NCBI GenBank assembly: GCA_016190985.1
Contig: JACPPI010000003.1
Span: 1-34,197, forward strand
From: Opitutia bacterium
GTDB lineage: Bacteria > Verrucomicrobiota > Verrucomicrobiia > Opitutales > Opitutaceae
Reading direction: 5' to 3'
Length of the DNA stretch: 34,197 bases
Under the pieces are notes generated by a model. The model worked only from the letters and a program-made list of their open reading frames with translations, did not search any database and was not told where the DNA came from. Each line of letters starts with the position of its first letter. The stretch's first letter is position 1. Shown here piece after piece: positions 5,101 through 22,232 of this stretch. Position numbers and translations under genes: made by a program.

Positions 5101-8100
5101 ATGAGTGACTCCGCCAAAGCCGTGTTTCTTTCCTATGCCTCCCAGGATGCGGACGCGGCGAAACGCATCGCCGACGCGCTCCGCGCCGCCGGCGTCGAGG
5201 TGTGGTTCGACCAGAGCGAGCTGGTCGGCGGCGATGCCTGGGACGCCAAGATCCGCGGGCAGATCGGCTCGTGCGCGTTGTTCGTGCCGGTGATCTCGGC
5301 CAATACCCAGGCGCGGCGGGAGGGATATTTCCGGCTGGAGTGGAAGCTCGCCGCGCAGCGCACGCACATGATGTCGGAGCGCACGGCTTTTCTTCTGCCG
5401 GTGATCATCGACGCCACGCGCGACGCCGAAGCCGATGTGCCCGGGGAATTCCGGGCCGTGCAATTCACCAAGCTCCCCGGCGGCGAGATGCCGGGAAAAT
5501 TTTGCGCGCAGGTAAAAAAATTGCTGGGTGGTTCAGAAATGGAGACGGGGCGTCCTCGCCCCGTTGAACGCGACGAGGGCGCCGCGTCTCCAGCTACTCC
5601 CAAGGTGGGCCAGCGCGTCCCTGCGCCGACATGGCTCGCCGCCGGCGCGGCCCTCGCACTCGCCGCCGGAGGCTATTTATGGTTCAAGTCTCCGACGGAA
5701 TCTGCGCCGCTCCCGGCGCAGAATGCGGGAGCAGGGACGCGCCCGCCTGCCCCGGCCAAGGAGGCGTCCACCGAATCCAAATCCGTCGCCGTGCTCGCCT
5801 TCGCCAACCTCTCCGACGACAAGGGCAACGATTCCTTCGGTGACAGCGTGAGCGAGGAATTGCTCAACGTGCTCGCCAAGGTGCCGGGCCTGAAGGTCAC
5901 CGCGCGCACCTCGGCATTTCACTTCAAGGGCAAGGACACACCCATCCCCGAGATCGCGCGCCAGCTCGGCGTGGCCTACGTGGTCGAGGGCAGCGTGCGC
6001 CGGTCGGGCGAGAAAGTCCGCATCACCGCGCAGCTCATCAAGGCGGCCGACGGCTTCCATGTGTGGAGCGACACCTTCACCCGCGACCTGAAGGACATCT
6101 TCGCCGTGCAGGACGAGATCGCCGGGCTCATCGCGGACAAGCTCCAGCTGAAGCTCGGCCTGAAGGCTAATCGCGCCGCCCTGAACCCCGAGGCTTACCA
6201 ATTGTATCTGGAGGCGGCCCGCGCGTGGAACCAGCGCGACAACGCCAGCCTCGACCGCGCCGAGCGATTGCTCCGGCGCGCCCTCGCGCTCCAGCCCGAC
6301 TTCGCCCGCGCCGTGGCCTTGATGGCGAATATCTTTTCGACCCGCGGCAACATCACCAATGCGGCGGACGCGGCTCCAATGATGCAGACTTTGGGCGAGC
6401 AGGCGCTGGTCTGGGCTGACCGCGCACTGACCCTTGATCCCGATCTCGCAGAAGGCTACGCCGCCAAGGGCAATGCGCTCGACCGCCTCGGCCGCTGGGG
6501 CGAGGCCAAGGCCGCATACCGTCGCAGCACGGAACTGGACCCGAACTACGCCACCGGCCACCAGTGGTATGCGCGCAGTCTTTCGCAGGAGGGCTACCTC
6601 GACGAGGCGCTGGCCGAAATGCGCCGCGCGATGGAACTCGACCCGCTCGCTCCGAGAATCTTGGACAACTATGCGGCACAGCTGCAGTGGGCGGGCCGCA
6701 ATGCCGAGGCGCTCGAAGTGCTGGACCGCGCTCTGGCCATCCAGCCGGGGTCGTTGCAAGCGCGGAGCTTTAAGGCCGGCGCCCTGATCAACCTGGGGCG
6801 CCACCGCGAAGCGCTGGCTATTCTGGAGGAACTCAAAACCCAGCCCAGTGCTCCCGAGTGGATTCAAATTGATCTGGCGCGCGCTCTCCAGGCGACTGGC
6901 CGGGGCTCGGAGGCGCAGACGCTGCCGCCACCCACGGACACGACTATCCGTGGACTTCTGCTCTGCCAATTGGGCCGACCCGAAGAAGGTATCCCACTGC
7001 TCAAGCCGCGTGCGTCCATCCATCGCGACGTCCTGCTTTGGACTTACCCAGAGGCCATGCCGCGCGAGTCGCCGGAGTTTCTGCGCAAGCTGGCGGAGTG
7101 GGGGATGGCCGATTCGTGGCAGCGCGCCGAAGCGTGGCGGGCAAAAAACCTGCCGAAGAAAGCCGCGCCGTCCGCGGTCGTCACCCCAGCACCCGACGAC
7201 AAGTCCGTCGCCGTTCTCGCGTTCGCCAACCTGAGCAGCGACAAGGAGCAGGAGTATTTCTCCGACGGCATCAGCGAGGAGCTGCTCAACGTCCTGGCCA
7301 AGGTGCCGGGCCTGAAGGTCTCGGCGCGCACGTCGGCGTTTCACTTCAAGGGCAAGGACACGCCCATCCCCGAGATCGCTCAAAAGCTCGGCGTCGCCTA
7401 CGTCGTCGAGGGCAGCGTGCGCAAGGCGGGGGACAAGGTGCGCATCACGGCGCAGCTCATCAAGGCGGCCGACGGCTTCCACGTCTGGAGCGACACCTTC
7501 ACCCGCGACCTGAAGGACATCTTCGCCGTGCAGGACGAGATCGCCGGGCTGATCGCAAAGAATCTTTCCCTTCGATTGGGCGTGGATCGTTCGACGAGCG
7601 GAAGACCTGCTGTTCCCGAAGCCTATGAACTTTATCTGCAAGGACGCGCGGCGTGGAATCTTCGCACGCCCGAGGGCTATGCGCGCGCCGAGAGTCTGCT
7701 GAGCCGGGCGATCGATCTGGATCCGGGATTTGCCCGAGCCCATACCGCGTTGGCCGACGTTTGGAGCATTGCCGGTTACGAAAATGAAATCGGCGGAGGA
7801 ACCTATGGCTGGAGAAATTCGCCCACGGTGGAGAAGATCGCGGCCAAAGCTAATCAGGCTCTAGCACTCGATCCTCAATGCGCCGAAGCTTACACGAGTC
7901 AGGCGCTAGCTTTTGAATTCCGTTGGGAATTGGCGGCGGCGGAGCGGTCCTACCGGCGCGCGATCGAGCTGAACCCAAACTATTCCACCGCGCGGCACTG
8001 GTTTGGCATGTTGCTGTGGGTGCAGGGCGAAATGGACGAGGCCTTGCGGCAGATGCAGCTGGCCGCCGCAAGCGATCCGTTATCCCATCGGATTCTCGAC

Positions 8101-8619
8101 ACCAATGCGCGGATGCTGAATCTGTTGGGCCGGCCCGCCGAGGCGCTGGCCGTCGCTGATCGGGCGCTGGCGCTTCAGCCGCATGCCGTCCAGGCCGCGA
8201 CGCAAAAGGCCCACGCCTTGGTTCTGCTGGGCCGCACCGACGAGGCCGTGACCTTGATTGAAAAGGCGCTCGCCTGGGGCGGGAGCATCGAGCAACGGAC
8301 CAATGCCCTTGTCGTCCTGCACATGGCCGGCGCGGATGCGGCCATGCGCCGCGTCATCGGCTCAACGGCGGATATGCCCGCCTCCCAATTTAAGTTCGCT
8401 AGCCTGATTGCCCTTGGCCGTCCGGACGAGGCGCTCGTCGAGCTCCGTCCGGCTGACCTGCACGAAAATCAACTGATCAGCACGGCCGTATTTCAGTTTT
8501 ATGATCCGGTCCGGGAGGACCCGAGATTTCTGCAGGCCATCAGTGATGTCGGTTTCATGGAGAATTACCGTCGCGCTCGAGCGTGGCTGACGGCCAACCT
8601 GCCGAAGGTGAAAAAATGA
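5101..8619 (+). CDS. TIR-TM-TolB-like-TPR-TolB-like-TPR protein (array gene A)
   Basis: 1172 residues. Residues 1-140 are a TIR domain: KAVFLSYASQD, VWFDQSELVGGDAWDAKI, and REGYFRLEWKLA with candidate NADase glutamate E80. A repeat-derived linker (about 146-168) precedes one hydrophobic segment (177-195). Unlike its paralogues, a TolB-like COG5616-type block follows directly (228-353), then TPRs, then a second block (702-827) and more TPRs. The first TPR region ends in a segment resembling the C-termini of A and F (AEAWRAKNLPKK versus RAWLTANLPKVKK), which suggests a fusion of two proteins. Block 1 has SFGDSVSEE in place of the YFSDGISEE of the others. The start has no clear Shine-Dalgarno site. 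The stop overlaps the start of gene B (ATGA). A TIR signalling or NAD-cleaving role is inferred. Confidence 0.9.
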   Translation: MSDSAKAVFLSYASQDADAAKRIADALRAAGVEVWFDQSELVGGDAWDAKIRGQIGSCALFVPVISANTQARREGYFRLEWKLAAQRTHMMSERTAFLLPVIIDATRDAEADVPGEFRAVQFTKLPGGEMPGKFCAQVKKLLGGSEMETGRPRPVERDEGAASPATPKVGQRVPAPTWLAAGAALALAAGGYLWFKSPTESAPLPAQNAGAGTRPPAPAKEASTESKSVAVLAFANLSDDKGNDSFGDSVSEELLNVLAKVPGLKVTARTSAFHFKGKDTPIPEIARQLGVAYVVEGSVRRSGEKVRITAQLIKAADGFHVWSDTFTRDLKDIFAVQDEIAGLIADKLQLKLGLKANRAALNPEAYQLYLEAARAWNQRDNASLDRAERLLRRALALQPDFARAVALMANIFSTRGNITNAADAAPMMQTLGEQALVWADRALTLDPDLAEGYAAKGNALDRLGRWGEAKAAYRRSTELDPNYATGHQWYARSLSQEGYLDEALAEMRRAMELDPLAPRILDNYAAQLQWAGRNAEALEVLDRALAIQPGSLQARSFKAGALINLGRHREALAILEELKTQPSAPEWIQIDLARALQATGRGSEAQTLPPPTDTTIRGLLLCQLGRPEEGIPLLKPRASIHRDVLLWTYPEAMPRESPEFLRKLAEWGMADSWQRAEAWRAKNLPKKAAPSAVVTPAPDDKSVAVLAFANLSSDKEQEYFSDGISEELLNVLAKVPGLKVSARTSAFHFKGKDTPIPEIAQKLGVAYVVEGSVRKAGDKVRITAQLIKAADGFHVWSDTFTRDLKDIFAVQDEIAGLIAKNLSLRLGVDRSTSGRPAVPEAYELYLQGRAAWNLRTPEGYARAESLLSRAIDLDPGFARAHTALADVWSIAGYENEIGGGTYGWRNSPTVEKIAAKANQALALDPQCAEAYTSQALAFEFRWELAAAERSYRRAIELNPNYSTARHWFGMLLWVQGEMDEALRQMQLAAASDPLSHRILDTNARMLNLLGRPAEALAVADRALALQPHAVQAATQKAHALVLLGRTDEAVTLIEKALAWGGSIEQRTNALVVLHMAGADAAMRRVIGSTADMPASQFKFASLIALGRPDEALVELRPADLHENQLISTAVFQFYDPVREDPRFLQAISDVGFMENYRRARAWLTANLPKVKK
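5540..5592 (+). repeat. REP-like element translated in the TIR-TM linker of gene A
   Basis: Outer stem TGGAGACG/CGTCTCCA (5540-5547/5585-5592) encloses hairpin ACGGGGCG-TCCT-CGCCCCGT (5545-5564). The encoded peptide METGRPRPVERDEG matches LEPGRPRPGHGTRG in gene F at the same domain boundary. Confidence 0.7.
5782..6159 (+). repeat. TolB-like block 1 of gene A
   Basis: A 126-codon conserved block (SVAVLAFANLSDD to LQLKLG), recurring intact at 7204-7581, 10590-10967 and 13913-14290, and truncated at 17972 and 21076. Confidence 0.85.
7204..7581 (+). repeat. TolB-like block 2 of gene A
   Basis: Second 126-codon block within the same gene, closer to those of B and C than block 1 is, with the YFSDGISEE motif intact. 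Homologous recombination between the two copies would delete the intervening TPR region. Confidence 0.85.
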
Positions 8620-11600
8620 GCGACCCCGCAAACAAAGCCGTCTTCCTCAGCTACGCGTCGCAGGACGCCGAGGCGGCGAAGCGCATCTGCGAGGCGCTGC
8701 GTTCGGGCGGCGTCGAGGTGTGGTTTGACTCCGAGGGCGGGCTCGAGACCGGCGACGAGTGGGACGCGAAGATCCGCCGGCAGATCAGGGAGTGCGTCCT
8801 GTTCATCCCGATCATCTCCGCGAACACCCAGGCGCGGCACGAGGGCTATTTTCGCATCGAGTGGGAGCTCGCCGCGCAGCGCGCGCTTGGCATCGCGAGC
8901 GGCGTGGCGTTTATCCTGCCCGTCGTGATCGACGACACGCGCGAACCCGCCGCTCTCGTCCCCGACCGCTTCCGCATGGTGCAGTGGACGCGGCTGCCGG
9001 GCGGTTCCGTGCCGTCGGACGTGCTACAGCCTTTCCTGAGGCTCTGGTCGCACCGCGCGGGCGTGGTGGCCCATCAGGCGGCGCAGTCGTCCGCCGCGTC
9101 CGACAACATGATGGCTCCGCTCGCACCGCGGCGCCGCGTCGCAGTGGCGGGATGGGGCGTGGCGGTTCTCGCAATCGCCCTCGCCGCCGGGGCGTTCTTC
9201 CTTTTCCGCCCGACGACAGACAAAGGCCCGGTCGGGACGGTCCCGGTCGCCGCCCCGGCGCCGGAGTCTCTCTCCGAGGCGAGGAGACTTGCCCAGCGTG
9301 CCCGGGCGGTCTTCGACGCCACAACCGTCGTCCGGCAGGACATGGAACTAGCCGAGCAACTGGTGCAAAAGGCGCAGGCGCTTGATCCCACCGACGCCTA
9401 TGTCTGGGCCGTCGCGGCGCAAGTGGACGCCGGGTTCAATCTGTTCGCCTATGATTCGAGCGAGACCCGGCGGGGCCAGGCGTTCGACAAAGCAGAGAAA
9501 GCCCTGCGGCTAGAGCAGAATTCCTTCGAGGCCCGGCTCGCGAAAGCCTTCGTGCTCACCTACGCCGTGCCGGAGGGGGCAAAGCCGACCGACGCGCTTC
9601 CGCTGGTGGAGAGCCTGTTGCGCGAACAACCGGACAACCGACGGGCCTTGCTCATCCTGGGCTGGAACATGCAAGTCGTGGGCCGCTTGGACGAAGCGGT
9701 CATCGCCTACCGCAAGGCGCATGATCGGTGGGCGGAGGGCTGGGCGCTGCTGTGGGCCGGGCGATTGGCCGAAATCGAGGCGGTGGCGGAAGCGGGCTTC
9801 AAAGCCGGCCAGGCCAACACTGACCGGGTGGCCGGGGCGGGCGATGTCCGGCAGGCCCTCATGTTGCTCTTGTCGCTGAATCTTCGCGCGCGAGAAGACC
9901 TCGAGGCCGCGCAGGCCGTGATGGAACGGATGCCACCCGACGAATTGCGGGAGGACGAGACGGCGTGCTATGCCGCCGATCTGCGCCTGATGCGGCGCGA
10001 GCCGGAGCGGGTGGGAGAAATCATGCGCAGCGTGCCTCGCGACTGGATGGTGCCGCGCGCCGGCGGCGGTCCCTACAAGGCGTATTATTCCGCCTTGGCC
10101 CTGGAACTGGCCCACCACCCAGAAGCGGCCGCGATCGAATGGCGCGCGGCGCTCAAACTGGTGGAGGAGCGGCTGGCCACCCGCGCGAACGCACCGGAAC
10201 TCGTCAAGTGGAAAGCCCTGCTTCTCGCCCGCCTCGGCGAAACGGAGGAAGCGACCCGGCTCCTGCGCCTGGCGGAGCAATTGGCCGGCCGATCCGGCGG
10301 CGAGGTGCAATGGGAAACGATTGAGACTTACCTGATCCTTGGTCGCCGCGACGAAGTCCTGGCTGCGCTGCCCAGACTTTTGCAGGATCCGTTCCTGCGC
10401 TTTTGGATCCATGCCTACCTGCGCTTCGACCCACGCTACGATTCCCTGCGCGGCGACCCCCGCTTCGAAAAAATCCTCCGGGATACGCGACCGGCCAACG
10501 CCAAGCCGTTTGCCGACCAGCCTCCAGCGCCTCCGTCTGCTCCTTCCTCCCGGCTCCCTGCTCCCGTGCCGGCGAAAGCCGACGAAAAGTCCGTCGCCGT
10601 GCTGGCGTTCGCGAATCTCAGCGACGACAAGTCGAACGAATATTTCTCCGACGGCATCAGCGAGGAGTTGCTCAACGTGCTGGCGAAAATTCCCGGACTG
10701 AAGGTGACGGCGCGCACGTCGGCGTTCCACTTCAAGGGCAAGGACACGCCCATCCCGGAAATCGCGCAGCAACTCGGGGTGGCCTACGTCGTCGAGGGCA
10801 GCGTGCGCAAGGCCGGCGACAAGGTCCGCATCACGGCGCAGCTCATCAAGGCCGCCGATGGTTTCCACGTGTGGAGCGACACCTTCACGCGCAACCTGAA
10901 GGACATCTTCGCCGTGCAGGACGAGATCGCCGGGCTGATCGCGCAAAATCTCCGGCTGAAGCTGGACGCCTCGGGTCCGGCCAAAAAAACCGTCCACCCC
11001 GAGGCCTACGCCCTGCTGCTGGAGGGCAGGTTTTTCATAGCGCGACGGAGCGAGGCAGATTTCGTGGAGGCGGAAAAACGATTTCGCCGGGCGCTGGAAA
11101 TCGATGCCGACTTTGCCCCGGCCTTCGCCGGGATCGCCGACGCGGCGGTGCTGCGCGGCACCTACGGGCTGATGGAAGGCAGTTCGGTCCAGCCGGCGGA
11201 CTTTGCCCGGGCCCGGGAAGCGGCGCGACGGGCCATGGAACTCGATCCCACGCTCGCGGAACCGCATCACACGCTGGGATTGCTTTATGTTTCGGAACGG
11301 AGATTCGCCGAGGCGGATCGGGAATTTGCCGCGGGCTTCCGGCTCAATCCCAACTACGGCATCGCCTACCATTGGCGCGCCCTGCTGACCGGCGCGCTCG
11401 GGCGCTTCGACGAGGCCATCGCGGACCTCGAGCGGGCGATCAGTCTCGATCCTCTGGCGACCACTGCTCTCTTCACCTACGCCCGGTTCATTTTTGCCGC
11501 CGGCCAGACGCAGGAGGCGCTGGCCCCGATGGAGCGCGCGATCGCCCTGCGCCCGAGTTTCTTCCCCGCCGCGCACAGCACCCGCGCGCTTTTCCTGCTC

Positions 11601-12011
11601 AAGCTGGGCCGCACCGACGAGGCGCTGGCCGAGGCCCGGCTGGTGCGGCAAAACCTCGCCGCGCCCACCCGCTGGTGGGCCGACGGCGATGCGCTTTATG
11701 TGCTCAAGCAGGCCGGCGCGCCCGGCGAAGCCGAGGCCTACCTGAGCGAACTCCGCGGCCGGTTGCCCGCCGACAGCCATTTGCTGGGCTATGCGTTGCT
11801 GGCGATGGGCGGATCCAACGAGGCCTGGCGCTTGTTGGCCGGCACCAATCCCATTTCGTGGACCCAGCTCTTTTGGGCGCCGATGATGGAGCCGCACCAC
11901 CACACCCCCCCGCTGCGAGACCTCTTCACCCGCCTCGCGGCCGTGGAGCATTACGACCACGCCCGGGCGACGATCATGCGCCTGCGCCAGGAGCACGAGG
12001 CGAAGAAATGA
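8616..12011 (+). CDS. TIR-TM-TPR-TolB-like-TPR protein (array gene B)
   Basis: 1131 residues. The TIR domain (1-140) keeps KAVFLSYASQD and EGYFRIEWELA with candidate catalytic E82, but the BB-loop region reads WFDSEGGLETGDEWD, with one extra residue and different chemistry from the WFDQSELVGGDAWD of the other four. A basic RRR patch precedes the membrane segment (175-197). A TPR-like region (about 205-640) ends in YDSLRGDPRFEKIL, then come the TolB-like block (659-784) and C-terminal TPRs ending KK. The ATG at 8616 overlaps the stop of A by ATGA, arguing for translational coupling; an in-frame ATG 33 bases upstream has no TIR homology. The middle region resembles that of E. No REP element is seen in its linker. 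Confidence 0.9.
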   Translation: MSDPANKAVFLSYASQDAEAAKRICEALRSGGVEVWFDSEGGLETGDEWDAKIRRQIRECVLFIPIISANTQARHEGYFRIEWELAAQRALGIASGVAFILPVVIDDTREPAALVPDRFRMVQWTRLPGGSVPSDVLQPFLRLWSHRAGVVAHQAAQSSAASDNMMAPLAPRRRVAVAGWGVAVLAIALAAGAFFLFRPTTDKGPVGTVPVAAPAPESLSEARRLAQRARAVFDATTVVRQDMELAEQLVQKAQALDPTDAYVWAVAAQVDAGFNLFAYDSSETRRGQAFDKAEKALRLEQNSFEARLAKAFVLTYAVPEGAKPTDALPLVESLLREQPDNRRALLILGWNMQVVGRLDEAVIAYRKAHDRWAEGWALLWAGRLAEIEAVAEAGFKAGQANTDRVAGAGDVRQALMLLLSLNLRAREDLEAAQAVMERMPPDELREDETACYAADLRLMRREPERVGEIMRSVPRDWMVPRAGGGPYKAYYSALALELAHHPEAAAIEWRAALKLVEERLATRANAPELVKWKALLLARLGETEEATRLLRLAEQLAGRSGGEVQWETIETYLILGRRDEVLAALPRLLQDPFLRFWIHAYLRFDPRYDSLRGDPRFEKILRDTRPANAKPFADQPPAPPSAPSSRLPAPVPAKADEKSVAVLAFANLSDDKSNEYFSDGISEELLNVLAKIPGLKVTARTSAFHFKGKDTPIPEIAQQLGVAYVVEGSVRKAGDKVRITAQLIKAADGFHVWSDTFTRNLKDIFAVQDEIAGLIAQNLRLKLDASGPAKKTVHPEAYALLLEGRFFIARRSEADFVEAEKRFRRALEIDADFAPAFAGIADAAVLRGTYGLMEGSSVQPADFARAREAARRAMELDPTLAEPHHTLGLLYVSERRFAEADREFAAGFRLNPNYGIAYHWRALLTGALGRFDEAIADLERAISLDPLATTALFTYARFIFAAGQTQEALAPMERAIALRPSFFPAAHSTRALFLLKLGRTDEALAEARLVRQNLAAPTRWWADGDALYVLKQAGAPGEAEAYLSELRGRLPADSHLLGYALLAMGGSNEAWRLLAGTNPISWTQLFWAPMMEPHHHTPPLRDLFTRLAAVEHYDHARATIMRLRQEHEAKK
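10590..10967 (+). repeat. TolB-like block of gene B
   Basis: Full 126-codon block, intact through GLIAQNLRLKL, joining the B-type middle region to its C-terminal TPR region. Confidence 0.85.
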
Positions 12012-15000: not shown

Positions 15001-15340
15001 GATGGACGGCACGGTGATCCAAGTGTTGCGGGCGACCGGCCAGCAGCAGGAGGCGGAAGCCCACGCGGCACAGCTTTTGCAGACGCTGCCGCCGGACAAC
15101 ATGCTCCGCGGCTATGTGCTGGCCGGAGTTGGGCGTCCCGCGGAGGCGGTTCAGCAGTTGTTTGCGACAGGACTCGATTCGTCGATGATCTTCTCGTTCA
15201 TCTACGACTCATTCTGGGACGAGGTCCGGAAGGACCCCCGGTTGCCCGAATTGCTGGCCAAGCTCAACCTCGTGGAGGAATACCGGCGCGGTCGCGAAGC
15301 CTTGGCACAGATAAGGCAAGAGCGGGAACGGAAAAAATGA
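12008..15340 (+). CDS. TIR-TM-TPR-TolB-like-TPR protein (array gene C)
   Basis: 1110 residues. TIR domain at 1-140, with WFDQSELVGGDAWDQKI and EGYFRLEWRLA (candidate catalytic E81). The linker encodes a direct-repeat stretch (EVRGQKTEVS). A KK.NR patch precedes the membrane segment (173-191). The middle TPR region is clearly paralogous to that of F (both share RSIINSLQVLR and ETGK.AA). A TolB-like block follows (636-761) with a divergent YFKGKQVPMAE stretch, then C-terminal TPRs related to those of E. The ATG at 12008 overlaps the stop of B (ATGA). The frame is open far upstream through gene B, but that part lacks domain homology. Its stop overlaps another ATG, that of the degenerate copy D. 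Confidence 0.9.
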   Translation: MSTTETKAVFLSYASQDAEAAKRIADALRAAGVEVWFDQSELVGGDAWDQKIRRQIKECALLVPIISANTQARTEGYFRLEWRLADQRTHLMAKGRPFLLPVVIDDTRDADAQVPDSFTEVQWTRLPGGEDGAVFAARVKKLLGGEPAEVRGQKTEVSTRDGAVVPPKKTNRLWLAPVLLVVFAGAALLIWQPWRQSEKLPASAALPAATTASATEIARARARIIPDRWQKGDFDAIAPALDRIIAASPDEADAWALRSIINSLQVLRILDPGTQPLETGKTAAEHALRLAPESPLGQLALGLHLVANVSRGGDPRACREPIDRAVAALAPDALTRYAELVSFWLGYDFENTKRVAAAWLKADPPANYPAWIMTSMSVVMRQATEVEKWAERSFRDQDVTSVRALCNLADAHFYLRADLAACRATLERIPVRARSIPRVVYWRWLLPMAEGRWDDALQELAQVPDAMLLDVVYNGPKALLVGLAHQQAGRADAANSQFREAERLLREKLAADPDNEALRAVLAVTLASAGQADEARRELTLVEPLVRGRAPNVYRPRLVVSLAQAYGALGDFKTMAFWLRKLFAEPSSVPFTPASFRLDPRFNRAIDAPEIQALLKEFASLDMPVAAPAAKADDKSVAVLAFANLSDDKANEYFSDGISEELLNVLAKISGLKVSARTSAFYFKGKQVPMAEIARQLGVAYVVEGSVRKQGDKVRITAQLIKAADGFHVWSDTFTRDLKDIFAVQDEIAGLIAQQLQLKFSESSRAVKQVNPEAYRLVLEGRHFWMQRTEEGFVRAEAAYKKALEYDPQFAQAHAGLADVWSIRAWYKLIGGNRQAEDDLARASTEVRLAIQIDPSLAETYATLGAVLFNQRKFSEADQAFQASLRLNPNYGFAHHWYAQMLFAEGRPKEGLLEFDRAISADPLAFISLTSYAVFLSNFGLYEEALAMNDRAIALRPDMFVPAVGQRADILLNLGRKKEALALARSVVQHASVQPRWWMDGTVIQVLRATGQQQEAEAHAAQLLQTLPPDNMLRGYVLAGVGRPAEAVQQLFATGLDSSMIFSFIYDSFWDEVRKDPRLPELLAKLNLVEEYRRGREALAQIRQERERKK
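12450..12480 (+). repeat. Short direct repeats in the TIR-TM linker of gene C
   Basis: Imperfect tandem CAGAGGT units occur at the same domain boundary at which A, E and F carry REP-like palindromes. The wording resembles the CAGAAGACGGAGGACAGA stretch at 26847-26864. Confidence 0.55.
13913..14290 (+). repeat. TolB-like block of gene C
   Basis: Full 126-codon block, ending in GLIAQQLQLKF. It provides the intact reference for the deletions in E and F. Confidence 0.85.
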
Positions 15341-15462
15341 GCGAACCCACCAAAGCCGACTTCCTTTCCTGCGCGTCGCCAGCCTTCGCCATCCGCCGTC
15401 GCTGCGCTTTGGCGAGACGAGAGGCTGCGGCCGGCCGGCCGGCCGCGGAAGCAGCAAAGCGC
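15337..15462 (+). pseudogene. Degenerate TIR gene start (array copy D)
   Basis: An ATG overlaps the stop of C exactly as at the A/B and B/C junctions. MSEPTKADFLSCAS matches the start of the TIR domains, then about 22 foreign residues (PAFAIRRRCALARREAAAG and following) replace QD, then AEAAKR resumes. Homology stops there and the antisense toxin gene begins at once. The frame stays open to 15909 but only as antisense of the toxin-antitoxin pair. I read this as the 5' stump of a sixth array gene. Confidence 0.65.
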
Positions 15463-15717
15463 CTATACCCACTCGACGCGCAGCACGCGGATGACTTTGA
15501 CCGCGTGGTCCGCATGGTAGGTCACGATCAGGTCGTCCAGCAGCAGAACCTGGTTCACGCCGCCGTCACTGTCCGTCTCGGCCTAGTCGCCCTCGCGAAA
15601 TGGTGTCACCTTCAACGTTTCCATCCGTGCCACCATCCGGCGTTGCACCGCCGGCGGGCTTGCGACCAAGTCGGCGAGCACTTCTTCGCTGATGGCCAGT
15701 TTGTAGTCAGCCGGCAT
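15463..15717 (-). pseudogene. RelE/ParE-like toxin with an in-frame stop
   Basis: From ATG 15717 the frame reads MPADYKLAISEEVLADL and continues to residue 44, where a TAG (15585-15583) interrupts it. Beyond the stop it goes on in frame with VNQVLLLDDLIVTYHADH and ends RVLRVEWV. The full 84-codon length, the beta-strand-like C-terminal half and the 11-base overlap with the small gene upstream fit a RelE/ParE-type toxin partner. The assignment rests on size, layout and general character, not on a catalytic motif. The single nonsense codon could be a real inactivation or a base error. Confidence 0.5.
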
Positions 15718-15925
15718 CCGGCGCGGCCTGCAGCTTGGCGAGCATCGCCTTCACCGCGTCGAGATCGTAAGCCTTGCCGGCCGCCATCTGGCGGTTTCTG
15801 CGCGCCAGCTCCTGCCGGTTCCCCTCGGAATCGGCCCGCAGGCTGTGGCGGACATAGGCCTCCAGCTTGCGCTTCTCCTCAACGCTCAACCCGTCGAGTT
15901 GGGGCTTGATCTCCAGGAACGTCAT
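15707..15925 (-). CDS. Putative antitoxin of a type II toxin-antitoxin pair
   Basis: 72 residues starting MTFLEIKPQLDGLSVEEKRK. The pattern of a short helical N-terminus followed by a charged tail (AYDLDAVKAMLAKLQ) is like the small addiction-module proteins that precede RelE/ParE toxins. It overlaps the damaged toxin frame by 11 bases. It is divergent from array gene E, with 102 bases between the two starts. If it still binds DNA it might influence the E promoter, but that is speculation. I see no defined DNA-binding fold, so the label antitoxin depends on context. Confidence 0.55.
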   Translation of the reverse strand: MTFLEIKPQLDGLSVEEKRKLEAYVRHSLRADSEGNRQELARRNRQMAAGKAYDLDAVKAMLAKLQAAPDAG

Positions 15926-16027
15926 GCCGGAAGCAATGTCCAGGAACGGTTTGTTTTCAAGGCAAATGCCACTGACCCGCGTCCGCTGGACATCGCCAGG
16001 CCACGCCGTCATGCCTTCTGCTCCGTC

Positions 16028-19000
16028 ATGAGTGATTCCGCCAAAGCCGTGTTTCTTTCCTATGCCTCCCAGGACGCGGAGGCGGCGCGGCGCATCGCCG
16101 AGGCCCTCCGCGCCGCCGGCATCGAGGTGTGGTTCGACCAGAGCGAGCTGGTGGGCGGCGATGCGTGGGACGCGAAGATCCGCCGGCAGATCGCCGAGTG
16201 CGCCTTGTTCACGCCAGTGATCTCCGCCAACACGCAGGCGCGGCGGGAGGGCTATTTCCGGTTGGAGTGGAAGCTTGCGGCCCAGCGCACGCACATGATC
16301 GCCGACGGCACGCCGTTCCTGTTGCCGGTCGTCATAGACGCGACGCGCGACGCCGCGGCCTTGGTGCCACCGGAATTTAGCACTGTGCAATGGATCCGCC
16401 TACCCAGTGGCGAGACGCCGGAGAAATTTTGTGAGCGCGTGAAGAAACTTCTCGGCCAAAGTGAACCGGCGGGAGCGGCTTTGCGCCGCGATGGTTCGGA
16501 AGAATCGGGGCATAAAGCCCCTCCTGCAATAAAACCATCCCGTTCTTGGCCCGTGCCCGCGATAATCGGAGTCGTGGCCATCGCGGTCCTCGCGCTTTGG
16601 CAGCCGTGGAAAGAAACGGCGGTGTCGCCCGCTGCGGCCAAGACCGTGGAATCGGCGAAACCAGCCGCGCCGCTCACCGAGGCGCAGAAGCTCGTCGCGC
16701 AAGCCCGCCGGATCTACGAGGAGGGCGACGAGCTGAACCGCGAAAATCTTTTGCTGGCGGAGGAGTTCGTGCAACGCGCGCTCGCGCTCGACTCCGCCGA
16801 GCCCGCGGCGTGGGAGCTGGCCGCGTGGCTGTCCTACCAGATGGTCTGGCACTCGATCGACGAATCCCCTGCGCGCCGCGAGACGCTGCTGCGTCAGGCC
16901 AACCGCGCGGTGGCGCTCGCCCCGGACGGGGTGGCGGCCCAGCTCGTTTTTGCCAATGCGCAGTTAGTCGGACGGACGGGAAAATCGGAAGCGGCCGTTG
17001 CCCCGGGCTACTATGGGGAGATTCAACGCAGTCTGCAGCGGCTGGCGGAACAAGAGCCGCGAAATTGGAAAATCCAACGGGCCTTGGGCACCGTCTATCG
17101 AAATTTGAACCTGACGGACGAGGCGATCCGCTCCCTGCAGCGGGCGCTCGAACTATCGGGCGAAGATCCAGTGGCCAGCGCCGATCTCGTCAACGTGCTC
17201 ATCCGCCGCCAGCATTACCCGGAAGCGGAGGCGATTCTTGCGCGAGCCCTCGCGCGCCAGCGCAGCGGGCGGCTGCTCACTTTCGATGTGGTCGTAAAAT
17301 GCCGTTGGCGCGGCGATCCGGTCGGCGCGCTGAAATCGATCGAGTTGTGGCCGGCGTGGCTGTTGCGGGAAAATCGCGGCGTCGCGGTCGCCTGGCAAGC
17401 GGCCTACTGGGGCCGGCAACCGGAGCGGGCGCTTTCCATCGTGCAAGAGGTCACGCGCGACTACCTGCGCGACGTGAACTTCGCCGGACCGCGTGCCGTG
17501 CTGTCCGCGCGCGCGCACGAACTCGCGGGCAACACGGTCGCGGCCCAGGCGGACTGGCGCCTCGTCGTGCAGCGTTGCGACCAGGATCTTGCCGGCAACT
17601 CACAGGATGTCGGAGCGTTGTTTTGGAAAGCGTGGGCGCTCGTGCGTCTCGGCGACCCCGCTGGTGCGCAGGCGACGGCCACGCTCGTGCGGCAGCAGAT
17701 GCAATCCGTGCCGAGCAATTTCTTCAAAACGCAACCGGCCGCCACCCTGTGGGCGATGGTGGGCTGGACGGATCTCGCTCTCTCCGACCTTCGCGGCTTG
17801 CTGGAAAAGCCGGGGGACGAGGTTTCGTTGACGCGCGCCTACCTCGAACTCGAGCCGGCCTTCGACTCGCTCCGCCAGGATCCTCGTTTCCAAGTCCTCT
17901 TGGGACAGGCACCAGCTCCCAAGAAACCCGAGGATGGTGGGCAAAAATCGGTCTTGGTTCTGGACGACAAATCTGTCGCCGTGCTGGCCTTCGCCAATCT
18001 CTCCGACGACAAGGGCAACGAGTATTTCTCCGACGGCATCAGCGAGGAACTGCTCAACGTGCTGGCGAAGGTGCCGGGCCTGAAGGTGTCGGCGCGGACC
18101 TCGGCCCAGCAGTTGCAGCTTAAGCTCGGGGCGGCGGCCGGAACCAAGCAGATCGTGAACCCCGAGGCCTACGGTTTGGTGCTGGAAGGCCGGCATTTCC
18201 TGACGTTGCGAACGGCGACCGGTTTCGATCAGGCCGCACGCGCCTTTACCGAGGCGCTGCGACTCGACCCGCAATTTGCCCAGGCCCAGGCGGGTTTGGC
18301 GAACACCACGGCGCTGCGGGGGCGATATCGCCTGTTGGATGGGGTGGGCCGGGTCGAGGAGTTTGATCAGCTGGCGATTGCCCAAAGCCGGCTGGCCCTG
18401 CAGATGGATCCCTCGCTGGCCGAGCCCCACGCGGCGATCGGCTTTGTGCTCACGGACCGCCGGCAACTGGCGGAGGCAGAGCAGGAGTTCCAAAAGGCTT
18501 TTGCCGCCAATCCGAACTACGCGACCGCCTACCATTGGCACTCCCATGTGTATGGGGTGCGGGGCCGGTTGGACCTCGCCCTCAAGGAAATCGGCCGGGC
18601 CACCACGCTCGATCCACTTTCGTTTATCATGACCTATATCCTCGGGTTCTATACCTGCGATACGCAGCGCTATGCTGAAGCCCTCGCCATACTCGACCGG
18701 GCCGCCTCGCTCCGTGGCCAGGGCGAGTCGTTTCTGCCGTTGGAAGCGGATCGGGCGCGCATGCTGCTCGCGCTGGGCCGCCCGGCGGAAGCCCTGGCGG
18801 TGGCGCGTAAGGTATTGCACGATCCCCGGCTGATCACGGCGGGTTGGTATGCCGCGGGTGAGGCCATTCAGGTGTTGCAACGAGGGGGAGAGACCGCCGA
18901 GGCAGCCCGGCTGGCTGAGTCGCTCATCCCGGCGATGCCTCCCGGCAGCTATCAGCGCGGCTATGTGCTTTGCGCCCTGGGCAGGTTCCGTGAGGGCCTG

Positions 19001-19183
19001 CCGCAATTGGCGAGCATGCCGGTCATCGCGCAAAACCGGATTTATTGGCACCCGATGTTCGATCCCGTCCGCGATACGCCCGAGTTCCGGCAGCTGTTGG
19101 TGAAACTTGGCTGCGTGGAGGAATACAAGGTGGCGCGGGCGACGCTGGCCCGGATGCAGCAGGAGCAGGAGGCTAAGAAATGA
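16028..19183 (+). CDS. TIR-TM-TPR protein with internally deleted TolB-like block (array gene E)
   Basis: 1051 residues. TIR domain at 1-140 (candidate catalytic glutamate in EGYFRLEWKLA), nearly identical to A at its start. A REP-encoded linker precedes one membrane segment (about 178-194). The middle TPR-like region resembles that of B. The TolB-like block begins at 649, but after ARTSA (693) it jumps straight to QQLQLKLG, losing 73 residues in frame relative to C. C-terminal TPRs related to those of C follow. ATG at 16028 is chosen by homology with MSDSAKAVFLSYASQD; the open upstream frame is antisense to the antitoxin gene. E is not overlapped by a preceding gene, so it likely has its own promoter. 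Its stop overlaps the start of F (ATGA). Confidence 0.88.
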   Translation: MSDSAKAVFLSYASQDAEAARRIAEALRAAGIEVWFDQSELVGGDAWDAKIRRQIAECALFTPVISANTQARREGYFRLEWKLAAQRTHMIADGTPFLLPVVIDATRDAAALVPPEFSTVQWIRLPSGETPEKFCERVKKLLGQSEPAGAALRRDGSEESGHKAPPAIKPSRSWPVPAIIGVVAIAVLALWQPWKETAVSPAAAKTVESAKPAAPLTEAQKLVAQARRIYEEGDELNRENLLLAEEFVQRALALDSAEPAAWELAAWLSYQMVWHSIDESPARRETLLRQANRAVALAPDGVAAQLVFANAQLVGRTGKSEAAVAPGYYGEIQRSLQRLAEQEPRNWKIQRALGTVYRNLNLTDEAIRSLQRALELSGEDPVASADLVNVLIRRQHYPEAEAILARALARQRSGRLLTFDVVVKCRWRGDPVGALKSIELWPAWLLRENRGVAVAWQAAYWGRQPERALSIVQEVTRDYLRDVNFAGPRAVLSARAHELAGNTVAAQADWRLVVQRCDQDLAGNSQDVGALFWKAWALVRLGDPAGAQATATLVRQQMQSVPSNFFKTQPAATLWAMVGWTDLALSDLRGLLEKPGDEVSLTRAYLELEPAFDSLRQDPRFQVLLGQAPAPKKPEDGGQKSVLVLDDKSVAVLAFANLSDDKGNEYFSDGISEELLNVLAKVPGLKVSARTSAQQLQLKLGAAAGTKQIVNPEAYGLVLEGRHFLTLRTATGFDQAARAFTEALRLDPQFAQAQAGLANTTALRGRYRLLDGVGRVEEFDQLAIAQSRLALQMDPSLAEPHAAIGFVLTDRRQLAEAEQEFQKAFAANPNYATAYHWHSHVYGVRGRLDLALKEIGRATTLDPLSFIMTYILGFYTCDTQRYAEALAILDRAASLRGQGESFLPLEADRARMLLALGRPAEALAVARKVLHDPRLITAGWYAAGEAIQVLQRGGETAEAARLAESLIPAMPPGSYQRGYVLCALGRFREGLPQLASMPVIAQNRIYWHPMFDPVRDTPEFRQLLVKLGCVEEYKVARATLARMQQEQEAKK
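16469..16527 (+). repeat. REP-like element translated in the TIR-TM linker of gene E
   Basis: Outer GCGGGAG/CTCCTGC (16469-16475/16521-16527, one G-T pair) encloses GCGGC/GCCGC (16475-16479/16485-16489) and GGGGC-ATAAA-GCCCC (16507-16521). It has the same two-hairpin plan as the intergenic elements and is read in frame. Confidence 0.65.
17965..18105 (+). repeat. 141-bp stretch identical to 21069-21209
   Basis: From CGACAAATCTGTCGCC to GACCTCGGC the bases equal those in gene F at every position I compared. The next base differs, and that point is the deletion junction in both genes. Flanks on both sides are clearly diverged. Confidence 0.85.
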
Positions 19184-21258
19184 GCGACTCGCCCAAAGCC
19201 GTCTTCCTCAGCTACGCCTCCCAGGACGCCGAGGCGGCCAAGCGCATCTGCGAGGCGCTCCGCGCCGCGGGCGTCGAGGTGTGGTTCGACCAGAGCGAAC
19301 TCGTGGGCGGCGACGCGTGGGATGCCAAGATCCGCAAGCAGATCAGCGAATGCACGCTCTTCGTCCCGATCATCTCCGCCAACACCCAGGCGCGACTCGA
19401 GGGCTATTTCCGGCTGGAGTGGAAAATCGCCGCGCAGCGCACGCACACGATGGCGGACGAACGCGTGTTCCTCCTGCCCATCGTGATCGATACCACGCGC
19501 GATACCGAGGCTCGCGTGCCCGCCGAGTTCAAGACGGTGCAATGGACCCGGCTGCCCGGCGGTGAGACGCCGCCCGCGTTTTGCGCGCGCGTGCTGAAAC
19601 TGCTTTCCGGTTCCGGCCTGGAGCCCGGGCGACCCCGCCCGGGGCATGGAACGCGCGGCGAGGTCGCCGTGCCTCCGCGGAAAAAATCCCGGCTCTGGCT
19701 CGCGCCGGTCCTCCTCGGGTTGTTCGCGGGTATCGCGGTTGTGATCCGTCAGCCGTGGCGGCAAAATGAAAACCCGGTCCGGTCCGTGCCGCCGGCGGTC
19801 ACGCTTGCGCCCGCTGCGACCGAGCTGGCCCGCGTCCGCGCCCAGCTCACACCGGACCGCTGGCAGCGGGAAGATTTCGCCGCCATGGCACCCACGCTCG
19901 ACCGTTTGCTGGAGGCCAACCCCGAATTGGCGGATGCGTGGGCCATGCGGAGCATCATCAACAGCCTGCAGGTGCTCCGGAACTACGACTCCAGCACGAA
20001 GCCGCTGGAAACGGGTAAGGCCGCCGCCGACCGCGCGACGCGCTTGGCGCCGGGCTCGCCGCTCGCGGACATCGCGACCGGGATGCACCTCGTGGCGATG
20101 ACGAGCCGGGGCGGCGACGCCCGCGCGTGCCGGCCATATCTCGACCGCGGGGTCGCCGCCCTGCCGCCGGATGCGCTGACCCGTTATGCGGAGCTGGCCT
20201 CCTACTGGTTCGCCTACGATTTCGACCAGGTGCAACGCTGCGGGGAAGCCTGGCGGGCGGCGGAACCGCAGGCGAGTTTCCCTCCGTGGATCTTTGCGCA
20301 GCTGAATGTGGTGCGGCGCCGGCCGGCCGAGGCGGAGCAGTGGGCCGAGATTGCGAAGGCCGACCCAAACATCACCGGAGTGCGGGCGTATTTCACGGCC
20401 TTTGAGAGCAAGTATTATCTGCGCGCCGATGTGCCGGCCGCGTGGGAGGTGCTGCAAAAGGTCCCGGCGGCCGGGCGCTCGGTGCACCGGGTCGTGCATG
20501 CGCGCTGGCTGGTGGCGATGGCCGACCACCGGTGGGACGAGGCGCTGCAGGAACTGTCCCAGGTGCCGGAAACGTTTCTCTTTGACCGTTCTTACCACGG
20601 CCCGAAGGCGTTGCTGACCGGGCTCGCACACCAGCGCGCCGGACGACCCGACGCCGCCGCGGCGCAATTCCGGGAGGCCGAGCGCCTGTTGCGGGAACAT
20701 CTGGCCGCCGATTCCGACAATGAAGAATTGCACACGGTGCTCGCCGTCACGCTGGCCTGTGCCGGGCGCGGCACGGAGGCGCGTAACGAGCTCGCCCTCG
20801 TCGAACCGCTGGTGAAGGGCCGCACCCCGAGCATTTATCGCGGATCGCTGGTCCTGACCATTGCGCAGGCCTACGCTGTGCTTGGCGATTACCGCCAGCT
20901 CGCGCCGTGGCTGCGTAAGCTACTCGCCGAGCCGTCGCAGTTTCCGTTTACCCCGGCGTCACTGCGGCTGGACCCTCGCTTCAGCGGCGTGATCGACGCC
21001 CCGGAAGTCCAAGCCTTGCTGAAGGAATTCGCCGGACTGGATCAGACGGCCTTTGCGCCAACCGCCGCCGACAAATCTGTCGCCGTGCTGGCCTTCGCCA
21101 ATCTCTCCGACGACAAGGGCAACGAGTATTTCTCCGACGGCATCAGCGAGGAACTGCTCAACGTGCTGGCGAAGGTGCCGGGCCTGAAGGTGTCGGCGCG
21201 GACCTCGGCGCGAAAAGCCTGCAGTTGCGCTTGGCGGCAGGTGCGAGGGCCAGCGTAA
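19180..21258 (+). CDS. TIR-TM-TPR protein, frameshifted in the TolB-like block (array gene F, 5' part)
   Basis: 692 residues as read. TIR domain at 1-140 (WFDQSELVGGDAWDAKI; candidate catalytic E80 in EGYFRLEWKIA), REP-encoded linker (LEPGRPRPGHGTRG), a basic RKKSR patch and a membrane segment (171-189). The middle TPR region is paralogous to that of C. The TolB-like block starts at 633, breaks after ARTSA (677), and a short unrelated tail RKACSCAWRQVRGPA precedes the stop. The missing 217 bp relative to intact blocks shifts the frame; the rest of the protein continues in another frame from about 21210. ATG at 19180 overlaps the stop of E. If real, the product is a membrane TIR protein lacking its C-terminal sensor. 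Confidence 0.85.
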   Translation: MSDSPKAVFLSYASQDAEAAKRICEALRAAGVEVWFDQSELVGGDAWDAKIRKQISECTLFVPIISANTQARLEGYFRLEWKIAAQRTHTMADERVFLLPIVIDTTRDTEARVPAEFKTVQWTRLPGGETPPAFCARVLKLLSGSGLEPGRPRPGHGTRGEVAVPPRKKSRLWLAPVLLGLFAGIAVVIRQPWRQNENPVRSVPPAVTLAPAATELARVRAQLTPDRWQREDFAAMAPTLDRLLEANPELADAWAMRSIINSLQVLRNYDSSTKPLETGKAAADRATRLAPGSPLADIATGMHLVAMTSRGGDARACRPYLDRGVAALPPDALTRYAELASYWFAYDFDQVQRCGEAWRAAEPQASFPPWIFAQLNVVRRRPAEAEQWAEIAKADPNITGVRAYFTAFESKYYLRADVPAAWEVLQKVPAAGRSVHRVVHARWLVAMADHRWDEALQELSQVPETFLFDRSYHGPKALLTGLAHQRAGRPDAAAAQFREAERLLREHLAADSDNEELHTVLAVTLACAGRGTEARNELALVEPLVKGRTPSIYRGSLVLTIAQAYAVLGDYRQLAPWLRKLLAEPSQFPFTPASLRLDPRFSGVIDAPEVQALLKEFAGLDQTAFAPTAADKSVAVLAFANLSDDKGNEYFSDGISEELLNVLAKVPGLKVSARTSARKACSCAWRQVRGPA
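19620..19676 (+). repeat. REP-like element translated in the TIR-TM linker of gene F
   Basis: GGAG/CTCC ends (19620-19623/19673-19676) enclose CCCGGGCG-ACCC-CGCCCGGG (19624-19643) and GGCGA-GG-TCGCC (19657-19668). It shares GAACGCG wording and the GRPRP peptide with the element in A. Confidence 0.65.
21069..21209 (+). repeat. 141-bp stretch identical to 17965-18105
   Basis: Partner of the stretch in gene E. Identity ends exactly where the 217-bp deletion begins. Confidence 0.85.
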
Positions 21259-22232
21259 ACCCCGAGGCGTTCGAGCTCTATATGCAAGCGCGGCAGGCGA
21301 TCAACCGGCGCGATACCGCAGGTTTTGCCCGAGCCGAGGAATTGCTCACACGTGCAATCGAGTTGGAACCCGGCCTCGCGCGCGCCCATGCCGCTATGGC
21401 TGATGTTTGGATCCTTTCAGCGATCACGCGCCAGGAAAGCGGATATTTCGGGCAGAGGAACTCGCCGGTGTTCGCCCGTATCGAGGGGGCAATCGACCGG
21501 GCACTTGCCCTTGACCCCGACTCGGCTGAAGCCCGCACCTCGCTCGGTTTTGTGCGGTTTTTACAGTGGAAACCCACTGACGCGGAGCGCGAGCTGCGTC
21601 GGGCAGTGGCCCTGAATCCAAATTATACCCTCGGACACCACTGGCTCGGCGCATGCCTGACCAACAGGGGTGAGTTTGACGAAGGTGTGGCTGAGTATCA
21701 GCGCGCAGTCGAACTGGATCCCTTTTCGTTCCGCATCCTGGACAACTATGGTGATGCTCTAAATACAGCCGGGCGCAGCGAAGAGGCGCTGCTGGTGATC
21801 AACCGCTCCTTGGAGTTACAGCCGAAGTCCGAGCAAACGCTCCAAAACAAGATCAGGACGCTTCTCGCCCTCAACCGACTAGCCGAGGCCGAGGCCATCG
21901 TCCGAATGCTGCCCGAGAACGAGGCGAGGCATTACCTCGCTAGACTGGGACACAAAGCCGAAGCAGAGGAGGCCTTGGCAAAGGCCAGCGGCCGGGATCG
22001 CACAGACCTCCTTTTGGCTTTCGACCGCATTGACGGGTGGCTCGATGCGGTCAGCCCCTTAGATATTAACATTATCGGACTTAGGCGGCTGTTTTCGTCC
22101 CCGGAGTTGGATCCTTTCCGCCATGACCCGCGCTTTCAGAAACTCATCGCGACTCTTGGCTTCACCGAGGCCCATGCACGCGCCCAAGCTTGGCGCGCGG
22201 CGCATCCGCCGGAGAAGCCGGTGGCGAAATAG
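21225..22232 (+). CDS. C-terminal TPR region of array gene F, severed by frameshift
   Basis: The frame is homologous to the C-terminal region of gene A: the end of a TolB-like block (AKSLQLRLAAG from 21210), then NPEAFELYMQARQAINRRD, several TPRs (ARAEELLTRAIELEPGLARAHAAMADVW and similar units) and a family-type end with DPRFQKLIATLGF. There is no good start codon: TTG at 21225 or ATG at 21282 would be needed, and neither has a ribosome site. It is therefore most simply the 3' part of gene F. Base composition near 22060-22090 is AT-richer than the TIR halves. The stop lies one base from the convergent kinase gene. Confidence 0.75.
   Translation: MRLAAGARASVNPEAFELYMQARQAINRRDTAGFARAEELLTRAIELEPGLARAHAAMADVWILSAITRQESGYFGQRNSPVFARIEGAIDRALALDPDSAEARTSLGFVRFLQWKPTDAERELRRAVALNPNYTLGHHWLGACLTNRGEFDEGVAEYQRAVELDPFSFRILDNYGDALNTAGRSEEALLVINRSLELQPKSEQTLQNKIRTLLALNRLAEAEAIVRMLPENEARHYLARLGHKAEAEEALAKASGRDRTDLLLAFDRIDGWLDAVSPLDINIIGLRRLFSSPELDPFRHDPRFQKLIATLGFTEAHARAQAWRAAHPPEKPVAK

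What the first reader, a model, noticed from the sequence alone, without database searches (positions are those of the whole stretch)
5101..22232. Tandem array of five giant TIR-TM-TolB-like-TPR paralogues plus a degenerate sixth
Directly seen: five genes each begin with a TIR domain retaining the candidate NADase glutamate (EGYFR.EW), then one hydrophobic segment, then TPR and TolB-like parts; A/B, B/C, C/D and E/F are coupled by ATGA. Known: bacterial TIR domains often cleave NAD+ or make NAD-derived signals, and proteins with TolB-like/TPR regions after a membrane span are known with winged-helix or cyclase N-termini. Inference: here TIR takes the place of the regulator, forming a multi-receptor operon, perhaps for defence or envelope sensing. 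No Thoeris ThsA-like partner is seen.
Basis: partly seen in the sequence, partly recalled or inferred. Interest (0 to 1): 0.85.

Follow-up and report, generated by a model that had tools for sequence, protein, structure and literature searches.

The report
Shuffled TIR receptor array in Opitutaceae
A bacterium carries rows of large membrane proteins that join a constant immune-type enzyme domain to swapped, highly variable binding parts, which looks like a bacterial immune-receptor repertoire, although nobody has yet tested what it does.

Summary
The array is real: five TIR-led genes (A, B, C, E, F) at 5101-22232 with four ATGA junctions. The putative catalytic glutamate is invariant in all 84 TIR-led ORFs examined from 13 genomes. 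Corrections: "D" is only a ~14-codon TIR stub; E and F lose the same TolB core at the end of a 141-bp exact repeat, the length by which two contig ends of this assembly overlap, so that damage is probably an assembly artefact. The genome has a second array and 17 TIR hits over cut-off.
New result: modular evolution. TIR and TolB blocks are conserved (72%, 80-84%), the TPR cassettes are not (30-34%), and the nearest relatives of front and rear cassettes never coincide (0 of 28; halves of one cassette agree in 19 and 13 of 28).
The second array holds a SIR2-TIR protein followed by an nSTAND1-TM-TPR ATPase, a pair adjacent in 75 of 80 loci of Opitutaceae and Proteobacteria. I read the array as a recombining repertoire of membrane TIR receptors signalling through NAD+, probably for defence. 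It is not Thoeris by membership. Enzyme activity, ligand and defence are untested.

The parts
5101..8619 (+). Receptor A, 1172 aa: TIR - weak TM - TolB-like - TPR - TolB-like - TPR
8616..12011 (+). Receptor B, 1131 aa: TIR - TM - TPR1 - TolB-like - TPR2; overlaps A by ATGA
12008..15340 (+). Receptor C, 1110 aa: TIR - TM - TPR1 - TolB-like - TPR2; overlaps B by ATGA
15337..15380 (+). 'D': TIR start stub of about 14 codons, overlapping C by ATGA; not a full paralogue (right edge approximate, by eye)
15466..15925 (-). Remnant of two small minus-strand ORFs (toxin-antitoxin-like by eye only; second ORF broken by a stop); the stretch 15459-16368 also lies between two receptors in G010:C166 at 84% identity
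   Evidence: no Pfam match
16028..19183 (+). Receptor E, 1051 aa as assembled: TIR - TM - TPR1 - truncated TolB-like - TPR2
19180..21258 (+). Receptor F, front part, 692 aa as assembled: TIR - TM - TPR1 - truncated TolB-like; overlaps E by ATGA
21225..22232 (+). Receptor F, rear TPR part in another frame
17965..18105 (+). 141-bp exact repeat, copy in E; TolB core missing right after it
21069..21209 (+). 141-bp exact repeat, copy in F; TolB core missing right after it
12032..12394 (+). TIR domain of C; candidate catalytic Glu is aa 81 (EGYFRLEW, second E)
12524..12580 (+). Predicted membrane segment of C (aa 173-191)
13910..14278 (+). TolB-like block of C (aa 635-757)

Best explanation
The window holds one of at least two arrays of membrane-anchored TIR receptors in this genome. 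Each has a TIR domain at the N-terminus (inferred cytosolic), one membrane segment, and a long TPR-TolB-TPR sensor that I infer to be periplasmic. Shown: the TIR and TolB blocks are kept nearly constant, while the two TPR cassettes differ strongly between copies and assort independently of each other among genomes; copy number changes at one locus. Inferred: recombination and gene conversion in the constant blocks swap TPR cassettes and so make a repertoire of sensors. Inferred: binding of an envelope-side cue (phage, toxin or competitor) clusters the TIR domains, which then cleave NAD+ either to deplete it or to make a nucleotide signal. Inferred and weaker: the signal, or co-assembly through TIR domains, feeds the SIR2-TIR / nSTAND1-TM-TPR pair that sits inside the second array.
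For: Catalytic-type Glu81 invariant in 84 of 84 TIR-led ORFs and in 10 of 10 SIR2-TIR proteins (one of the 84, L047:5736-6188, is probably the detached TIR of a second SIR2-TIR copy). Mean identity among 28 long receptors: TIR 71.5-71.7%, TolB 79.7-83.5%, TPR1 30.5-32.2%, TPR2 32.6-34.0%, alike within and between genomes. Same nearest partner for TPR1 and TPR2 in 0 of 28 (rho 0.02), against 19 of 28 (0.58) for the halves of TPR1 and 13 of 28 (0.75) for the halves of TPR2. dS of C against its G010 counterpart: 0.97 TIR, 0.94 TPR1, 0.67 TolB, 0.23 TPR2; C against B: 0.51 TIR, 0.42 TolB, 1.45 TPR1, 1.70 TPR2. Exact tracts of 134 bp in TIR (G013) and 152 bp in TolB (G017) between neighbouring receptors. 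Same locus with two receptors in G010 and G012. SIR2-TIR/nSTAND1 pair in exactly the same 10 of 57 genomes, adjacent in 75 of 80 loci. A TPR-S (PF20308) protein lies beside the second array.
Against: No activity, ligand, expression or phage data. The TIR part of the receptor model is below pLDDT 50, so the pocket was not checked by structure. Charges flanking the membrane segment favour N-in in only 31 of 49 (9 equal, 9 opposite). The pair is absent from three array-bearing genomes (G003, G013, G017) and receptors flank it in only 13 of 80 loci (7 of 24 with full 10-kb flanks), so the link is optional. In the window itself no effector, nuclease or known defence gene was seen. No receptor matched a PADLOC model as a whole. 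Arrays in draft genomes could in part be mis-joined at TolB, as E/F probably are.
Confidence: 0.45

Rival explanations
1. The proteins are ordinary signal-transduction receptors for envelope stress or nutrients, in which TIR is a protein-protein adaptor or a housekeeping signal enzyme; copies expanded by lineage-specific duplication without a conflict role.
For: TolB-TPR halves are shared with a cyclase-annotated protein. No defence gene in the window. The arrays lie beside housekeeping genes (PfkB kinase, CTP synthase, ABC transporter).
Against: Presence varies among the 20 other genomes of the genus (0 to 19 TIR_2 hits), modules are reshuffled, and Glu81 never varies. Part of the arrays carry SIR2-TIR and nSTAND1 genes.
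Confidence: 0.3
2. A multi-sensor Thoeris-like relay: the membrane TIR proteins work as ThsB-like signal makers for one SIR2-type effector, here the SIR2-TIR protein.
For: Several TIR genes around one SIR2 gene in the second array. SIR2 part fits BcThsA (Z 13.8, rmsd 4.2, 249 aligned). Thoeris itself can have several ThsB per ThsA (PMC7272460 and PMC12578639, passages).
Against: No SLOG or macro part is annotated; a TIR domain takes its place. The position read as the sirtuin Asn is Thr in 77 and Ser in 3 of 80 (that it equals ThsA N112 is inferred from motif and position). The pair usually occurs without such receptors and three arrays lack it.
Confidence: 0.15
3. A decaying or selfish duplicate family whose mosaicism is mostly assembly error or neutral recombination.
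For: E/F junctions at a 141-bp overlap, TIR stubs between genes (12 short matches in 7 genomes, some weak), F frame change.
Against: Most ORFs are open over about 1,100 codons; dN/dS is 0.07-0.54 in the five comparisons made with other genomes or with F, and at most 0.73 for C against B. Exact shared stretches in most drafts are 68 bp or less, too short to fool long-k assembly. G013 and G017 have intact arrays on contigs of megabases.
Confidence: 0.1

Closest known systems
Class III cyclase (and winged-helix) proteins with a C-terminal TolB-like/TPR sensor (COG5616-type; the winged-helix members are recalled, with only weak NCBIfam HilA/CadC matches)
   Same: TolB-TPR half: C aa 642-987 at 38% to a cyclase-annotated Rhizobium protein
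   Different: TIR takes the place of the cyclase or DNA-binding module; tandem arrays; additional TPR1 cassette in the long form
Thoeris (ThsA/ThsB)
   Same: TIR proteins in several copies near a SIR2 protein in the second array; SIR2 fold like ThsA
   Different: Membrane TPR-TolB receptors; effector is SIR2-TIR without an annotated SLOG; Asn position changed
SPARTA TIR-APAZ, AbTir, PdTir, TcpB TIR NADases
   Same: TIR domain related by sequence and, for SIR2-TIR, by fold (Z 12.6 to 8i87)
   Different: No APAZ or Argonaute; attached to membrane sensor or to SIR2
STAND/NLR-like conflict systems of multicellular bacteria (Kaur et al. 2020, PMC7159879; DGR-diversified sensors, PMC10907252; passages seen)
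   Same: TIR, nSTAND1, TPR parts; sensors that diversify
   Different: Here the TIR receptors hold no ATPase, and variation appears to come from cassette swapping, not from a retroelement (a retroelement was not searched for)

Membership tests
TIR domain (TIR_2, PF13676) | Match over the curated cut-off | tested here: met
   A, B, C, E, F at 64.8-78.9 bits, cut-off 28
TIR NADases | Conserved catalytic glutamate of helix alpha-C | tested here: met
   Glu81 in 84 of 84. HMMER aligns the same Glu of SIR2-TIR with a Glu of the SPARTA TIR; that this is the catalytic one is recalled
TIR NADases | NAD+ cleavage | not testable with these tools
   needs assay
TolB/FlgO-like sensor proteins (COG5616) | TolB-like block followed by TPRs | tested here: inconclusive
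   FlgO over cut-off in A only; alpha/beta block at aa 636-763 of the C model; no COG library
Thoeris | ThsA-type effector with SIR2-SLOG or macro-TM architecture | tested here: not met
   Window has none; the pair's protein is SIR2_2 + TIR_2 only at E up to 1
Thoeris | ThsB model match | tested here: not met
   Only partial, weak PADLOC ThsB matches of 15.7-19.8 bits; NCBIfam ThcB4 15.8 bits, cut-off 220
SIR2 NADases (SIR2_2, PF13289) | Match over cut-off and SIR2 fold | tested here: met
   33.2 and 32.2 bits, cut-off 24.5; Z 13.8 to BcThsA over 249 residues (model pLDDT 63)
SIR2 NADases (SIR2_2, PF13289) | Catalytic Asn and His (N112, H152 of ThsA) | tested here: inconclusive
   His178-type in 79 of 80, Asn position Thr/Ser in 80 of 80, but no residue-level alignment with ThsA was obtained
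nSTAND1 STAND ATPases (PF20703) | Match over cut-off, Walker A and B | tested here: met
   110.7 and 105.2 bits, cut-off 27.1; GQSGLGKT and ILIFDQFEE
Known anti-phage systems in PADLOC-DB 2.0.0 | Whole-protein match to a system model | tested here: not met
   Best is a TIR-only stretch of Aga_TIR-PNTD1-PNTD2, 46.0 bits, 106 of about 430 positions; nSTAND1 protein 0 matches

The most novel reading that the evidence does not exclude
Opitutaceae build a combinatorial, envelope-facing immune-receptor repertoire: constant TIR and TolB blocks serve as recombination handles between which two variable TPR cassettes are exchanged within and between genomes, and all receptors speak through NAD+ chemistry to a shared SIR2-TIR / nSTAND1 hub. 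This would be a bacterial counterpart of a diversified receptor family that does not use a retroelement.
Probability: 0.25. Interest if true: 0.88.

Novelty: new variant of a known kind. Interest (0 to 1): 0.66.

Why it matters
If right, bacteria diversify immune-type sensors by shuffling repeat cassettes between constant blocks, and TIR signalling can be fed by a transmembrane receptor, as in animal Toll receptors. Three things become directly testable: whether TPR cassettes set specificity, whether Glu81-dependent NAD+ chemistry follows, and whether the SIR2-TIR/nSTAND1 pair, found far beyond this family, is a defence system of its own. For annotation, the E/F case shows how near-identical tandem receptors can be damaged by short-read assembly.

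Tried and rejected
Degenerate full sixth paralogue: rejected, only a stub. Biological truncation of TolB in E and F: thought less likely than an assembly join, but natural 134- and 152-bp repeats in G013 and G017 and the lack of reads leave it open. Overall concerted evolution: mean identity within genomes is no higher than between genomes for TIR and TPRs, so only local conversion tracts are claimed. Membership in Thoeris: not met. A toxin-antitoxin identity for the D remnant: no Pfam match. PDB sequence search for the TolB block gave one match at E 1.6, and for the SIR2 profile A4 nothing relevant. Receptor fold search returned only TPR solenoids among the 50 rows shown. Plasmids: no record covers 80% of C; one distant SIR2-TIR (30.6%) in a Paraburkholderia replicon, again followed by nSTAND1. 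Literature: ten searches listed no paper that I recognised as describing TIR-TM-TolB-TPR arrays or a SIR2-TIR/nSTAND1 pair; two of them returned nothing and one (65) mostly noise, and only the open-access library was searched. Only passages were seen of PMC7159879, PMC7272460, PMC12578639, PMC12700824, PMC10474274 and PMC10907252.

Limits of counts: the 84 ORFs come from stretches that I chose and fetched because they had TIR hits, include ORFs cut at stretch or contig ends, leave out TIR matches under about 120 positions, and include one probable detached TIR of a SIR2-TIR copy (L047:5736-6188). In one search receptor A is among the 28 although its 'TPR1' stretch includes its first TolB block; E and F are not among them. 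In one search a dummy row (winE_C) entered the TPR2 set by a script slip; one search does not contain it. The 1.5-kb adjacency test allows overlap. The Fisher test (9 of 12 against 1 of 45, p 2.3e-7) used a threshold of 5 TIR hits chosen afterwards, counts the TIR of SIR2-TIR itself, and ignores kinship; I give it little weight.
Full report
What is there. The window is contig C6 of a 2.95-Mb, 34-contig genome. From 5101 to 22232 on the + strand lie five TIR-led genes: A 5101-8619, B 8616-12011, C 12008-15340, E 16028-19183 and F 19180-21258 with a rear part in another frame (21225-22232). ATGA overlaps are found at 8616, 12008, 15337 and 19180. On the left lie a minus-strand hypothetical gene and ABC-transporter genes, on the right a PfkB-family kinase (minus strand) and CTP synthase. 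Species names are not given for G000; same-genus genomes G004 and G018 carry contigs with the same lengths (24,614 and 18,906) as contigs of an Opitutus sp. and a Lacunisphaera sp. MAG, hence Opitutaceae by inference.

What was misread. 'D' is a stub of about 14 codons followed by a remnant of small minus-strand ORFs; the same stretch (15459-16368) lies between two receptors in G010:C166 at 84% identity. A has two TolB-like blocks. E and F share 141 identical bases, and in both the TolB core is missing right behind them; behind the repeat the two sequences differ at once. The only other 141-bp exact repeat among the fetched stretches of this genome is the overlap of two contig ends, which fits an assembler k of 141; related MAG contigs bear names such as k141_996631. 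I conclude a probable assembly join (my estimate 80-85%); the natural repeats of 134 and 152 bp in G013 and G017 count against certainty.

Family and spread. This genome has 18 TIR_2 hits, 17 over the cut-off, one of them the TIR of a SIR2-TIR protein. Of 57 genomes searched (own, 20 same-genus, the rest same family or order) 34 have a TIR_2 hit; the 20 same-genus relatives have 0 to 19. Fetched stretches show long receptors (TIR-TM-TPR1-TolB-TPR2, about 1,100 aa), short ones (TIR-TM-TolB-TPR, about 780 aa) and some without a detected TolB. In 387 genomes of the phylum, a TIR-to-TolB model was matched over nearly its whole length in 7, all of the same family; only five candidates per genome were scored, so this is a lower bound.

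Modules. Among 28 long receptors, identity is about 72% in TIR, 80-84% in TolB and 30-34% in the TPR parts, alike within and between genomes. For each receptor I asked which other receptor is nearest, module by module. Halves of TPR1 name the same partner in 19 of 28, halves of TPR2 in 13 of 28, but TPR1 and TPR2 in 0 of 28; rank correlations over 378 pairs are 0.58, 0.75 and 0.02. TIR and TPR1 agree in 4, TolB and TPR2 in 5, TolB and TPR1 in 1, TIR and TPR2 in 2 of 28. Where both partners are strong the figures are 10 of 11, 9 of 16 and 0 of 9. Examples: the rear cassette of C is 94% identical (dS 0.23) to a G010 receptor whose TIR and TPR1 differ at dS 0.97 and 0.94; the front of F and the rear of E both match one G011 receptor, though E and F are the doubtful pair. 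Exact shared stretches between receptors of one genome are 68 bp or less in 8 of 12 genomes with two or more receptor ORFs; the others are G000 (141, the E/F pair), G011 (104), G013 (134) and G017 (152). So mis-joins by long-k assembly do not readily explain the pattern. In G013 and G017 the tracts lie in TIR and TolB, the blocks proposed as recombination handles.

Turnover. The same chromosomal place (ABC genes and hypothetical gene on one side, PfkB on the other) holds two receptors in G010, where the ABC ATPase is 99.5% identical over 212 aa and PfkB 91.9%, and two receptors plus a stub in G012.

Catalytic residue. The second E of EGYFRLEW (Glu81 in C, Glu80 in A) is invariant in 84 of 84 TIR-led ORFs and 10 of 10 SIR2-TIR proteins; the first E (Glu75) is kept in 77 of 84. 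HMMER aligns the SIR2-TIR glutamate with one in SPARTA TIR; that this is the catalytic residue there is recalled, and the passages of PMC10474274 that I saw did not show it.

Topology. Of 55 intact receptors 49 have a hydrophobic segment in the linker and 7 have more than one segment. K/R counts are higher before it in 31, equal in 9, lower in 9. N-in with periplasmic TPRs is therefore likely, not shown. The model of C has pLDDT 80 overall, TPRs largely above 90, TolB block about 54-86, TIR mostly below 50.

The pair. The second array of this genome, and arrays in G004, G015, G018 and G035, contain a SIR2_2-TIR_2 protein (463 aa in G000 and G004) and next to it an nSTAND1-TM-TPR protein (about 1,090 aa). 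In the 57-genome set each was found in 10, the same ten; each of 11 SIR2 hits has the nSTAND1 hit beside it, while two nSTAND1 hits at contig starts stand alone. Nine of the ten have TIR-TolB receptors in the fetched stretches; G005 has only a TIR-led ORF without a detected TolB. G003, G013 and G017 have arrays without the pair. A scan of named genomes found 106 relatives, 80 kept: the two genes are neighbours in 75; the other five are L058, L076, L114, L122 and L132, most of them near contig ends. Hosts are Opitutaceae and other Verrucomicrobia records, Gamma- and Betaproteobacteria including Lysobacter strains. TIR receptors flank 13 of 80 (7 of 24 with full flanks), one of them in a record labelled Proteobacteria (L112). 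So the pair is a system of its own that is often, not always, nested in these arrays. By fold its front is like ThsA and KomC (Z 13.8 and 13.3), its rear like SPARTA TIR (Z 12.6); model confidence is modest (pLDDT 63). The residue two before the conserved Asp, Asn in active sirtuins by the motif as I recall it, is Thr in 77 and Ser in 3 of 80, while His is kept in 79. In ThsA, N112A abolishes NAD+ cleavage (PMC7272460, passages). So TIR rather than SIR2 may be the active part of this protein; this is an inference.

Mechanism. Shown: architecture, conservation, module assortment, gene coupling, the linked pair. Inferred: periplasmic sensing by variable TPRs, TIR clustering, NAD+ cleavage, defence. 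Defence is favoured by patchy presence, turnover, shuffling, TIR/SIR2/STAND company and a TPR-S protein beside the second array, but housekeeping neighbours and the absence of any known defence gene in the window leave a signalling role open.

Known or new. Parts are all known; the combination TIR-TM-TPR-TolB-TPR in tandem with independent cassettes was not met in ten literature searches of one open-access library, in PADLOC or in NCBIfam. I rate it a new variant of a known kind.

Noticed in passing
L019:12608-13996 and 14461-17742 (own genome, contig C11); 80 loci L057-L136: SIR2-TIR + nSTAND1-TM-TPR two-gene cassette spread over Opitutaceae, Lysobacter relatives and Betaproteobacteria; no PADLOC match for the nSTAND1 protein and only TIR-part matches for the other.
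   Followed up: partly
L019:3362-5386 (minus): Protein with TPR-S (PF20308) and MAP3K_TRAF_bd matches, next to the second TIR array; a TonB-dependent receptor gene lies beyond it.
   Followed up: no
window 17965-18105 and 21069-21209; G000 C3:1-141 and C11 end: 141-bp exact overlaps, a fingerprint of the assembler k; C11 and C3 probably adjoin or share a repeat in the real genome.
   Followed up: partly
G012:C42, G000:C11:94318-94497, G011:C61, G013:C1, G020, G018, G010: Short TIR start stubs between receptors, perhaps scars of recombination at TIR starts; some matches are weak.
   Followed up: partly
L042, L045, L047, L049 and other SIR2-TIR loci: The SIR2 domain has Thr/Ser where active sirtuins have Asn, yet keeps Asp, Glu and His: a possible non-cleaving, NAD-binding or filament-forming SIR2.
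   Followed up: partly
window 3-3328 (minus): ABC-2 transporter set with an ABC_transp_aux (GldG-like by recall) protein next to the array; housekeeping-looking neighbour.
   Followed up: no
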